Assembly: GCF_015207755.1 (NCBI RefSeq)
Contig: NZ_JADEWH010000011.1
Coordinates: 1 to 64,000 of the forward strand
DNA from: Nodularia sp. LEGE 06071
GTDB taxonomy: Bacteria > Cyanobacteriota > Cyanobacteriia > Cyanobacteriales > Nostocaceae
Direction of reading: 5' to 3'
Length of the DNA stretch: 64,000 nt
Positions 55,042 through 64,000 of the stretch are shown piece after piece. The stretch's first letter is position 1. Every line of letters begins with the position of its first letter. The notes below the pieces were generated by a model, which was not told the origin of the DNA, made no database searches, and saw nothing but the letters and a program-made list of their open reading frames with translations. The translations under genes and the position numbers were made by a program.

Positions 55042-55189
55042 GATGGGGTACTGCTGTATTTAACCAAAAAGCGCTATATTTGACCTGATAATTCCGTAAA
55101 ACTAGTTAATGCTGGTGTAAATAGCTTTTAACAATGTGGTTGCTGACAGGCGCAAGGCGCAACATTTCTTTTATCTGCAAGGCACAAAT

Positions 55190-56641
55190 ATGTCACAAAT
55201 ACCTCAACGCGTCTGGGAAAAAATCCAGGAAGTAAAGGAGAAGCGGCTTCAGGAATTGGATTTAAGCAATGATTGGAACGCTGATGACAAGGAAAAATTA
55301 ACAGACATTCCTGCTGAGGTATTTGATTGCAACTGGTTACAAGTATTGAACTTAAGCTACAACCAAATCACAATATTGCCTGATGCGATCGCCCGGCTTC
55401 AAAATCTCGCCACACTGAATTTAAGGAACAACCAAATCACGACATTGCCAGATGCGATCGCCAGTCTGCAAAATCTCAAAAAACTGGATTTAAGGAACAA
55501 CCAAATCACGACATTGCCAGATGTGATCGCCAGTTTGCAAAATCTCACACAACTGCATTTTAGCGGAAACCAAATCACCAGATTCCCTGATGCGATCGCC
55601 AGTCTGCAAAATCTCACTTCACTGTATTTAGGCAGCAACCAAATCACAATATTGCCTGATGTGATCGCCAGTCTGCAAAATCTCACCCAACTGGATTTAA
55701 GCTTCAACCAAATCACGACATTGCCTGATGCGATCGCCAGTCTGCAAAATCTCACCACACTGAATTTAAACAACAACCAAATCACCACATTACCTGATGT
55801 GATCGCCCGTCTGCAAAGTCTTACCTCACTGGATTTAAGCGGCAACCAAATCACGACATTGCCTGATGCGATCGCGCGTCTGCAAAATCTCACCTCACTG
55901 AATTTATGCAACAACCAAATCACCACATTACCTGATGCGATCGCCCGTCTGCAAAGTCTCACCGCACTGGATTTAAGCAACAACCAAATCACCATATTCC
56001 CAGATGCGATCGCCCGTCTGCAAAATCTCACGGAACTGGGTTTAAGCAGCAACCAAATCAGAACATTGCCTGATGCGATCGCCAGTCTGCAAAATCTCAC
56101 AGAACTGTATTTAAGCGGCAACAAAATCACAACATTGCCTGATGCGATCGCCAGTCTGCAAAATCTCACCCAACTGGATTTAAGCGACAACCAAATCACG
56201 ACATTGCCGAATGCGATCGCCCGTCTGCAAAGTCTCACCTAACTGTATTTAAGCCGCAACCAAATCACCATATTCCCAGATGCGATCGCCCGTCTGCAAA
56301 ATCTCACAAAACTGGATTTAAGCAACAACCAAATCACCACATTCCCAGATGCGATCACCCGTCTCCAAAATCTCACGGAACTGGGTTTAAGCGACAACCA
56401 AATCACCATATTCCCAGATGCGATCGCCCGTCTCCAAAATCTCACCCAACTGGATTTAAGCGACAACCAAATCACCACATTGCCTGATGCGATCGCCCGT
56501 CTCCAAAATCTCACAGAACTTTATTTAGACAACAACTCCATTGAAAAGCCACCACTGGAAGTTGTAGAAAAAGGTCTGGAGGCAATTAAAGATTATTTCC
56601 GACAATTAAAAGAGGAAGGCACAAGTTCAACAAGGAAATAA
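55190..56641 (+). pseudogene. Leucine-rich-repeat gene with in-frame TAA (Roco-like remnant)
   Basis: ATG 55190 (MSQIPQRVWEKIQEVKEKRL). After a 45-residue cap there are 18 tandem 23-residue LRRs of the type LQNLTxLxLSxNQITTLPDAIA. Repeat 14 has TAA (56240-56242) where other repeats have CAA, GAA or AAA, and the frame then continues cleanly for four more repeats to a TAA at 56639-56641. Translation would therefore give 350 residues, or 483 if the stop were sense. The C-terminal VVEKGLEAIKDYFRQLKEEG is the linker that in cyanobacterial Roco proteins leads into the ROC GTPase, which is absent. Most repeats encode DAIA through a HIP1 site. I judge it a recent pseudogene or a shortened LRR protein. 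Confidence 0.8.
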
Positions 56642-62578: not shown

Positions 62579-64000
62579 ATGACTACAACCACATCAATTA
62601 CATCTCAACAATATGCAGAATTTGACCATGTTTTCCAATTGTTTGATGCTAATGGTGATGGCTTCATCACTCATGAGGAAATCGTGGATGCTCTCGAAGT
62701 TCTGGGAAAAGGCGTTTCGACTCAAGATCGGACTAACCTGTTGAATGTACTCAAAACCAACGATATCGTGACACGGGATGCTTTCATTGAATGGATGGCA
62801 AACCGCCAGGATATGGACATGGCGGCGGATCTACGACAAGTGTTCCATCTGATTGATGTTGATGGTAGTGGCAAATTATCCGTTGATGAGTTCACGCAAG
62901 TTATTCGCTGTTTCAATACCACAGCCAGCGATGCAGAAATTGCCGCATCGGTGAAAGCAGTCGATTTAGATGGAGATGGTGAAATTGATTTTGAAGAGTT
63001 TATTGTGAGTCAGACTTCTGAATCGCCTCTGAAGATTTCCATCGCAGCCTTACGCAGTTTCAAAAAGACTTTGCTTCAGTACAAGAAAGTTGCCGAGTTT
63101 TCCTCAATTGCCCTGATTGAAGTTGATTCTGAATTGGGAGCAGGAACGCGCGGTCAATCTATGGGAACGGCCGCATTGAGAGAAGCTGCAATCCAAAAAC
63201 AGTCTGCCCTCATGCACGCCGAGAATGGTGTTTTGAGTCTGGATAGTCTGAAAGTGCAAACAGAAAATAAGGCAGATGCCCTGGGAAACAAACATAACCA
63301 CGCCAAGTATATTGATGCATTGTATAAAGTGTTGACTGGAACGAGTGAACTGGTGGCACAAACCCTACAGGCGGGGTTGTTTCCAGTTGTACTGGGAGGA
63401 GATCATTCAACGGCGGCGGGAACGATCGCTGGCATCAAAAAAGCCTTTCCCCATAGCCGTTTAGGAGTCGTCTGGATTGATGCTCATGCCGATATTCATT
63501 CACCCTATACGACCCCATCGGGGAATATGCATGGAATGCCAGTGGCGATCGCTACTGGCACTGATAACTTCGCCAAACAAATCAATGACTTAGACTCAGA
63601 CACCCTAGAAATGTGGAATCTCTGCAAAGCATTAGGATTAGGAAATGGTGCCAATTTGAGCATTGACGATCTGGTGTATGTGGCAGTGCGAGATACCGAA
63701 GAAGCAGAAGATCACCTGATTGAAACACACCACATCCTGAATATGACCGCCGAGCAAGTTCGTACCTGGGGTGCGGATGTCGTAGCACAACACTGTTTGG
63801 CAAAATTAAATGGGGTGGATCTGATTTACGTCACTTTTGACGTGGATAGCATGGATTCCTCGATTTGCATGGGAACAGGGACTCCGGCTCCTCATGGCAT
63901 TTTTCTTGAAGAAGCGCGGCTGCTCAATGAAACGTTGGTCAAAGATCCACGGGTATGTTGTTGGGAAATCTGCGAAATTAATCCCCTGCTTGATACCCTG
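62579..64000 (+). CDS. EF-hand-arginase (ureohydrolase) fusion, partial at window end
   Basis: 474 codons in the window from ATG 62579, still open at the edge. N-terminal calmodulin-like part (about 10-145): canonical Ca2+ loops at 23-34 (DANGDGFITHEE), 93-104 (DVDGSGKLSVDE) and 129-140 (DLDGDGEIDFEE); the second hand around 57-70 is degenerate. From about 175 an arginase-family domain follows: GGDHS (273-277), DAHAD (301-305) and DVDSMD (421-426) supply the dinuclear Mn ligands, and WEICEINPLLDTL is the typical end of the catalytic core. The likely reaction is arginine to ornithine and urea, or a related guanidine substrate, with Ca2+ as regulator. Catalytic substrate and C-terminal residues are outside the window. 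Confidence 0.93.
   Translation, partial: MTTTTSITSQQYAEFDHVFQLFDANGDGFITHEEIVDALEVLGKGVSTQDRTNLLNVLKTNDIVTRDAFIEWMANRQDMDMAADLRQVFHLIDVDGSGKLSVDEFTQVIRCFNTTASDAEIAASVKAVDLDGDGEIDFEEFIVSQTSESPLKISIAALRSFKKTLLQYKKVAEFSSIALIEVDSELGAGTRGQSMGTAALREAAIQKQSALMHAENGVLSLDSLKVQTENKADALGNKHNHAKYIDALYKVLTGTSELVAQTLQAGLFPVVLGGDHSTAAGTIAGIKKAFPHSRLGVVWIDAHADIHSPYTTPSGNMHGMPVAIATGTDNFAKQINDLDSDTLEMWNLCKALGLGNGANLSIDDLVYVAVRDTEEAEDHLIETHHILNMTAEQVRTWGADVVAQHCLAKLNGVDLIYVTFDVDSMDSSICMGTGTPAPHGIFLEEARLLNETLVKDPRVCCWEICEINPLLDTL

What the first reader, a model, noticed from the sequence alone, without database searches (positions are those of the whole stretch)
62579..64000. Calmodulin-like EF-hands fused to an arginase-family enzyme
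One uninterrupted frame carries three canonical 12-residue EF-hand loops (plus one degenerate) and then a full set of arginase metal motifs (GGDHS, DAHAD, DVDSMD). Arginases are normally single-domain. The fusion suggests direct Ca2+ control of arginine or guanidine breakdown, relevant to cyanophycin and nitrogen metabolism in a filamentous cyanobacterium, where Ca2+ signals accompany heterocyst formation. I do not know a characterised example.
Basis: partly seen in the sequence, partly recalled or inferred. Interest (0 to 1): 0.75.

Follow-up and report, generated by a model that had tools for sequence, protein, structure and literature searches.

The report
Calmodulin-like arginase paired with urea channel
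A cyanobacterial enzyme that should split arginine into ornithine and urea carries a built-in calmodulin-like calcium sensor, and its relatives travel with a urea channel that carries a second such sensor, which suggests that some bacteria control arginine nitrogen and urea directly with calcium.

Summary
One uninterrupted 495-aa frame (62579 to contig position 64066; the window cuts off the last 22 residues) joins a four-EF-hand, calmodulin-like domain (loops 1, 3, 4 canonical, loop 2 degenerate), a conserved basic helix, and an arginase-fold domain with all metal ligands and the arginase SGNxHG loop. It is a family: 22 distinct genomes hold an intact fused frame (this host, Moorena, Symploca, UBA8803, Xenococcaceae, 14 Cyanobium/Synechococcus-type, one myxobacterial bin). 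Ca-ligand positions are selectively conserved. Best reading: a two-part Ca2+-controlled module, arginase plus urea channel, each built as effector, junction helix and calmodulin-like domain. Ca2+ binding, activity, direction of control and true substrate are untested; two substrate-contact positions differ from textbook arginases and the rocF cut-off is missed. A heterocyst role is not supported: 1 of 217 family genomes has the fusion. I found no paper describing it in the searches made, although a 492-aa Synechococcus entry that may belong was tabulated in 2007.

The parts
62579..64000 (+). EF-hand arginase gene, window part (473 whole codons of 495; stop at contig C11:64064-64066)
62603..63022 (+). 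calmodulin-like domain, residues about 9-148, eight helices in the model
   Evidence: Pfam; structure; PDB sequence matches to calmodulin
62645..62680 (+). EF-hand loop 1 (residues 23-34), canonical
62750..62785 (+). EF-hand 2, degenerate loop (residues 58-69); position 12 is F in 16 of 16 aligned fused rows
   Evidence: still forms helix-loop-helix
62855..62890 (+). EF-hand loop 3 (residues 93-104), canonical
62963..62998 (+). EF-hand loop 4 (residues 129-140), canonical
63041..63094 (+). junction helix (residues 155-172), basic and amphipathic
   Evidence: helix in model; conservation and moment; segment 150-175 pI 10.3 between domains of pI 4.1 and 4.8
63107..64000 (+). arginase domain (residues 177 on)
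63404..63406 (+). metal-ligand His276 in GGDHS
   Evidence: invariant in 21 rows of A2
63479..63493 (+). metal-ligand motif DAHAD (D301, H303, D305)
   Evidence: invariant in A2
63518..63535 (+). SGNMHG loop (residues 314-319), arginase-type substrate loop
63839..63847 (+). metal-ligand motif DVD (D421, D423)
   Evidence: invariant in A2

Best explanation
The gene encodes an arginase-type enzyme, probably cytosolic, whose activity is set by a built-in calmodulin-like domain. When cytosolic Ca2+ rises, the three working EF-hands fill, the calmodulin-like domain captures the neighbouring basic junction helix, and the arginase is switched (I favour activation, about 60:40, by relief of inhibition). 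Arginine, for example from cyanophycin, is then split into ornithine and urea. A separate urea channel with its own junction helix and EF-hand tail answers the same Ca2+ signal and moves urea across the membrane. Shown here: architecture, conservation, selection, co-occurrence, neighbourhood. Inferred: Ca2+ binding, switching and its direction, arginine as substrate, location, direction of urea flow.
For: Fusion and domains. Over all 22 intact fused rows, positions 1, 3, 5, 6, 8, 12 of loops 1, 3 and 4 have a mean commonest-residue share of 0.89, against 0.46 for the other loop positions, 0.43 for degenerate loop 2 and 0.49 for the rest of the domain; D1 and E12 are 22 of 22 in loops 3 and 4. 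dN/dS of the sensor 0.17 and 0.083 in the two pairs with dS of about 1 or less. One clade, read as one fusion and two losses. UT-EF in 28 of 29 distinct genomes tested that hold this arginase subfamily, and in 21 of 21 tested with an intact fused frame, against 11 of 386 in the phylum sample; Fisher p 1.3e-13 on the sample, relatedness not corrected. Next gene, same strand, in 21 of the 28, two of these UT genes being broken. Conserved basic junction in both proteins. The same calmodulin-plus-junction unit on a methyltransferase (34% identity over 164 aa).
Against: No biochemistry. The arginase score (209.7) is under the rocF equivalog cut-off of 227.6, and His and Glu replace two substrate-contact positions (recalled as N130 and D183 of animal arginase I). 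Loop 1 starts with E in L009 and is missing in L011. Three genomes keep the arginase without a detectable sensor, so the enzyme can do without it. UT-EF also occurs without EF-arginase (G125, G374, G368) and in several genomes lies beside nucleoside hydrolase genes, so it is not tied to arginine alone. The 12-codon loops by themselves give dN/dS 0.32 in the closest pair, from few sites. No NtcA-type site in 400 bp upstream of 20 such genes, 2.2 expected by chance.
Confidence: 0.6

Rival explanations
1. The calmodulin-like domain is a tether rather than a switch: it docks the arginase onto the urea channel (for instance onto the channel's junction helix or EF-hand tail) so that urea is passed on, and Ca2+ or Mg2+ only stabilises it.
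For: Close pairing and frequent adjacency of the two genes; both carry a junction helix and an EF-hand part.
Against: The channel with its tail occurs without the arginase in 3 sampled genomes, and the same sensor-junction unit sits on a methyltransferase, which fits a self-contained switch better.
Confidence: 0.17
2. The substrate is another guanidino acid, not arginine; the enzyme still releases urea under Ca2+ control.
For: rocF cut-off missed. His at the place of Asn130 (29 of 29 subfamily rows) and Glu at the place of Asp183 (28 of 28 readable rows; numbering recalled), both shared by 11 of 11 sensor-less Bacteroidota rows. Synechocystis ureohydrolases once annotated as arginase have no arginase activity (PMC2242806, section 13).
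Against: The whole TTPSGNMHGMP loop, close to that of Thermus and Bacillus arginases, is kept; best profile is rocF, far ahead of agmatinase 62.8 and hutG 73.9 bits; the 50 entries listed in the fold comparison are all arginases.
Confidence: 0.15
3. The EF-hands are structural or Ca2+-buffering only and have no effect on catalysis.
For: Sensor missing in 3 subfamily genomes without loss of the arginase.
Against: Selective conservation of ligand positions and of the junction helix over deep divergence; pairing with a second EF-hand protein of the same pathway.
Confidence: 0.08

Closest known systems
Bacterial arginase RocF (Bacillus, Thermus; PDB 1cev, 2ef4)
   Different: No sensor domain; Asn at the place of His; this protein stays under the rocF cut-off
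Plain arginases of Cyclobacteriaceae/Flammeovirgaceae (L051, L052, L097)
   Same: Close relatives of the catalytic half in the tree, same D[IL]HTP[YF]TTPSGNMHGMP loop
   Different: No EF-hands found
Mitochondrial ATP-Mg/Pi carrier (PMC6283063, abstract and outline seen)
   Same: Four-EF-hand calmodulin-like domain, amphipathic helix, effector domain in one chain; works-like model for both proteins here
   Different: Eukaryotic nucleotide carrier; unrelated effector
Calcium-dependent protein kinases of plants and protists (recalled)
   Same: Effector, junction, calmodulin-like domain; the junction is the switch
   Different: Kinase; sensor at the C-terminus, as in UT-EF but not in the arginase
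Animal UT-A/UT-B and bacterial dvUT urea channels
   Different: No EF-hand tail (recalled)
Calredoxin (PMC4911631, start of abstract in the listing)
   Same: Four EF-hands fused to an enzyme domain in a photosynthetic organism
   Different: Green alga, thioredoxin
CSE, Ca2+ sensor EF-hand of Anabaena (PMC7065334, passages)
   Same: Cyanobacterial EF-hand protein tied to nitrogen
   Different: Small protein with two EF-hands and no enzyme; called there the only known Ca2+ sensor of Anabaena

Membership tests
Arginase/ureohydrolase superfamily (PF00491) | profile match over the curated cut-off | tested here: met
   170.7 bits against cut-off 22
Arginase/ureohydrolase superfamily (PF00491) | binuclear metal ligands H, DxHxD, DxD | tested here: met
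   invariant in 21 rows
Arginase/ureohydrolase superfamily (PF00491) | arginase fold | tested here: met
Arginase RocF equivalog (TIGR01229) | score over the curated cut-off | tested here: not met
   209.7 bits against 227.6
Arginase RocF equivalog (TIGR01229) | substrate loop SGNxHG | tested here: met
Arginase RocF equivalog (TIGR01229) | Asn130 and Asp183 contacts (recalled numbering) | tested here: not met
   His and Glu
Arginase RocF equivalog (TIGR01229) | hydrolyses L-arginine | not testable with these tools
   needs protein
Agmatinase (TIGR01230) | score over the curated cut-off | tested here: not met
   62.8 against 174.3
EF-hand domain pair (PF13499) | profile over cut-off | tested here: met
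   73.7 bits against 30
Calmodulin | four canonical loops | tested here: not met
   three of four; loop 2 degenerate in 16 of 16 rows. Hence calmodulin-like, not calmodulin
Calmodulin | binds Ca2+ and changes shape | not testable with these tools
   needs protein
Urea transporter (PF03253), partner protein P0002 | profile over cut-off; UT fold | tested here: met
   236.7 bits against 25; fold modelled on the Xenococcaceae homologue
Urea transporter yut equivalog (TIGR03441), partner protein | score over the curated cut-off | tested here: not met
   146.1 against 274.6

The most novel reading that the evidence does not exclude
Cyanobacteria use a portable calmodulin-junction cassette as a true intracellular Ca2+ switch, placed on different effectors: arginase, an ArsM-like methyltransferase and, as related tails, a urea channel and a 5'-nucleotidase. 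Together these form a Ca2+-run nitrogen and urea module, a bacterial counterpart of calmodulin signalling with direct metabolic outputs.
Probability: 0.4. Interest if true: 0.88.

Novelty: new variant of a known kind. Interest (0 to 1): 0.72.

Why it matters
Whether bacteria use Ca2+ as a second messenger with defined effectors is a long-standing question; a 2020 paper calls CSE the only known Ca2+ sensor of Anabaena (PMC7065334, passages). Here a sensor is welded to an enzyme and another to a channel for the enzyme's expected product, so the output (urea release, urea flux, with and without Ca2+) can be measured directly. It is also a candidate for a genuine arginase in cyanobacteria, where two Synechocystis proteins first annotated as arginases proved to have no such activity (PMC2242806, section 13).

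Tried and rejected
Assembly or frame error: rejected, because the fused frame is open in 21 other distinct genomes. Agmatinase or formimidoylglutamase: profiles far below cut-off; guanidine hydrolase was not tested by a profile of its own. The weak XopAW hit is below that model's cut-off and rests mainly on the EF-hand part. Heterocyst link: 1 of 217 family genomes. Nitrogen control by NtcA: 0 sites in 20 upstream stretches of 400 bp, 2.2 expected, with approximate gene starts for L039 and L044. Plasmid or phage carriage: of 57 plasmid records with a match none covers 80% of the query; the sensor part alone has no plasmid match at 1e-8; 2 phage records match, residues 176-473 only, at 28%. Local EF-hand island (NOX5-like oxidase, phosphatase-EF) as the functional partner: among loci L004-L108 pieces of two of its genes recur at 63-92% identity in L037 only; weak matches were pentapeptide parts in L092 and L107 and an MscS part in L035. 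I do not claim a link. The fold comparison of the EF-arginase lists no calmodulin chain because arginases fill its 50 rows; that is no evidence against the sensor fold.

The genome of L029 is not held, so it counts among the 22 intact frames but not among the 21 or 29 tested for UT-EF. Alignment A2 holds 16 of the 22 intact fused rows; L007-L011 and L044 were left out there (L007-L011 because structure jobs may not hold them, L044 by choice). One search recounts the loops with all 22; loop 1 is E at position 1 in L009 and absent in L011. L063 was left out of A2 after a stop in the reference. The tree used 51 loci chosen by me, without L037; L046 (5' end off the contig) was not assigned to a group. 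L045 (labelled Bifidobacterium but sitting among Synechococcus) and L056 (one myxobacterial bin) were kept.

Full report

The catalytic half. The ligands of GGDHS, DAHAD and DVD are invariant in 21 aligned rows. The loop TTPSGNMHGMP matches Thermus and Bacillus arginases closely. Against that, the protein scores 209.7 bits with a rocF cut-off of 227.6, and at two places where animal arginase I has substrate contacts (Asn130 and Asp183; numbering recalled) it has His and Glu. Both are shared by 11 of 11 sensor-less Bacteroidota rows, so they look older than the fusion. I therefore call it an arginase-like ureohydrolase, most likely acting on arginine, and not a proven RocF. The genome has one other PF00491 protein (C14:9529-10395), whose sequence (L121:4440-5492) lacks the SGNxHG loop.

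The sensor half and the junction. Over the 22 intact fused rows, positions 1, 3, 5, 6, 8 and 12 of loops 1, 3 and 4 have a mean commonest-residue share of 0.89; the other loop positions 0.46, the degenerate loop 0.43, the rest of the domain 0.49 (a first count on 16 rows gave 0.90, 0.50, 0.44, 0.52). D1 and E12 are 22 of 22 in loops 3 and 4; in loop 1, D1 is 20 of 22 (E in L009, absent in L011) and E12 21 of 22. That is the mark of selection for metal binding. dN/dS is 0.17 (sensor) and 0.074 (arginase) between the window and Moorena, and 0.083 and 0.051 between two Symploca; the other pairs have high or saturated dS. Between the two acidic domains (pI 4.1 and 4.8) lies a basic segment of pI 10.3 that is helical in the model and conserved (LKISIAALRSFKKTLLQYKKVAE here; a LADLKRLKK core in most Cyanobium types), with hydrophobic moment 0.31-0.59 and charge +2 to +5 over 16 rows. 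This is what a calmodulin target looks like; that it is one is inference.

Who has it. In 386 genomes sampled over the phylum, 24 have a match at 1e-20; 7 are fused in one open frame, one more (G358) is split and one (G175) has the arginase part alone. The genome collection added Moorena, Symploca, UBA8803, a Xenococcaceae bin, further Synechococcus/Cyanobium types and one myxobacterial bin. With duplicates merged, 22 genomes have an intact fused frame. In the myxobacterial bin's phylum 47 of 282 genomes have a match, but only the bin's own match covers the sensor part. Within the host's family the fused gene is in 1 of 217 genomes. In a tree of 51 catalytic domains the fused proteins form one clade (SH-aLRT 100, 28 rows) with three sensor-less rows and one cut row nested inside, read as one fusion and two losses; Cyclobacteriaceae/Flammeovirgaceae arginases and Raineya lie next to it. 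The host's copy groups with UBA8803 and Moorena, which with the family count suggests horizontal gain.

In Cyanobium (L042) and the myxobacterial bin (L056) the next gene encodes a urea transporter (PF03253) with C-terminal EF-hands. This genome has one too, on another contig, C20:44104-45732 (P0002, 543 aa, exact start uncertain). In the same 386 genomes UT-EF is in 11; 8 of these are among the 9 with the arginase subfamily, Fisher p 1.3e-13, or 1.1e-11 if G175 is not counted with the arginase (relatedness not corrected). Of 13 cyanobacterial genomes with a UT over the Pfam cut-off in that sample, 11 have the EF type. Merging duplicates, 29 distinct genomes with the arginase subfamily could be tested and 28 have UT-EF or pieces of it; the one without, G358, has a split arginase. 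Of the 21 tested with an intact fused frame, 21 have UT-EF: next gene, same strand in 16; not adjacent in 5 (own, UBA8803, three Symploca). Of all 28, 21 are adjacent, including two broken UT genes; G403 and G404, which lack the sensor on the arginase, also have UT-EF elsewhere.

Shared decay. In Moorena SIO3I8 the fused gene has a stop in the sensor and the adjacent UT is interrupted, though a second intact UT-EF lies elsewhere. In UBA11344 the arginase is frameshifted, no sensor part was found, and the UT next to it is in pieces. In G358 the gene has a stop in the sensor and about 500 inserted bases, and no UT match is left. This fits a shared function, with three cases only.

A portable unit. 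The family search also hit G755, where a calmodulin-like domain and a very similar junction (RSFKEILKQYTQLAE; RSFKKTLLQYKKVAE here) sit in front of an ArsM-like methyltransferase (34% identity over 164 aa, E 2e-27; below the cut-offs of the ArsM models). Its sensor is close to eukaryotic calmodulin (1e-33 to a calmodulin chain). Sensor and junction travelling together on another enzyme is the best hint that the two form one switch.

How it most likely works. Ca2+ loads three hands, the sensor grips the junction helix, and the hold of that helix on the arginase changes; UT-EF responds to the same signal. The published parallel is the ATP-Mg/Pi carrier (four EF-hands, amphipathic helix, carrier; PMC6283063, abstract) and, recalled, the calcium-dependent protein kinases. 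Which way the switch goes is not known; I favour activation.

What is in print. Searches for arginase with EF-hand, calmodulin or calcium in bacteria or cyanobacteria, and for EF-hand urea transporters, listed no paper that by title or start of abstract describes either fusion. The library is open-access only, listings are capped, and preprints are not held. PMC2242806 (passages and section 13) lists WH7805_06086, 492 aa, 53.8 kDa, pI 4.48, among ureohydrolases of 24 cyanobacteria; its main text holds neither 'EF-hand' nor 'calcium'. Size and pI fit this family (P0001: 53.8 kDa, pI 4.64), but I did not see that sequence. The same paper says that Sll0228 and Sll1077 have no arginase activity. 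PMC11844795 (passages) describes urea as a nitrogen carrier from heterotrophs to a cyanobacterium, a setting in which a regulated urea channel would matter; the passages seen name no such channel. SyNOS, another arginine-using cyanobacterial enzyme, lacks a calmodulin-binding domain (PMC6104048, passages).

Noticed in passing
L003:77-2086 (contig C11, about 73076-75085, outside the window): NOX5-like NADPH oxidase with EF-hands, 9 kb downstream of the gene; cyanobacterial NOX5 is already known (PMC9421330, passages).
   Followed up: partly
L002:10866-12917: Histidine-phosphatase (phosphoglycerate-mutase-like) domain, a long middle part that looks membrane-spanning by eye, and EF-hands at the end.
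   Followed up: partly
L002:8715-10733: Two globin domains, a likely membrane stretch (by eye) and pentapeptide repeats in one protein; pieces recur near the broken arginase in L037.
   Followed up: partly
L186:823-2034 (genome G755): Calmodulin-like domain plus a very similar junction helix fused to an ArsM-like methyltransferase.
   Followed up: partly
L161:9681-11366 and L163:6541-8235: 5'-nucleotidase with C-terminal EF-hands close to UT-EF in Moorena and Symploca, with a nucleoside hydrolase.
   Followed up: partly
L031:3903-8307, L035:4378-8564, L034:6-2504: Stressosome-like operon (Protoglobin-STAS, STAS, HATPase, SpoIIE, DUF6272 in L031) near EF-arginase in three loci; in L035 two and in L034 one of its genes were scanned, the rest judged by eye. 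In L158 a SpoIIE gene with an ETR1_N domain and a DUF6272 gene lie beside UT-EF.
   Followed up: partly
L183:3658-7757 (contig C2 of the window's genome): A second nifH split by about 3.2 kb that holds a distant phage-integrase-like gene (PF00589 3.5e-4, under cut-off); looks like a heterocyst excision element. An intact nifH lies on C8.
   Followed up: partly
L036:10490-11000: About 500-bp insertion with ends resembling an IS200/IS605 element by eye, in the junction between sensor and arginase.
   Followed up: partly
L045: Bin labelled Bifidobacterium breve carries the Synechococcus-type pair; probably mislabelled.
   Followed up: no
L160:10728-11933 (genome G368): Sodium/glutamate symporter about 1 kb after a UT-EF that has no EF-arginase match in its genome.
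   Followed up: no
window 55136-56242: Leucine-rich-repeat protein of near-identical repeat units (by eye), with a long antisense frame that is probably only a by-product of the repeats.
   Followed up: no
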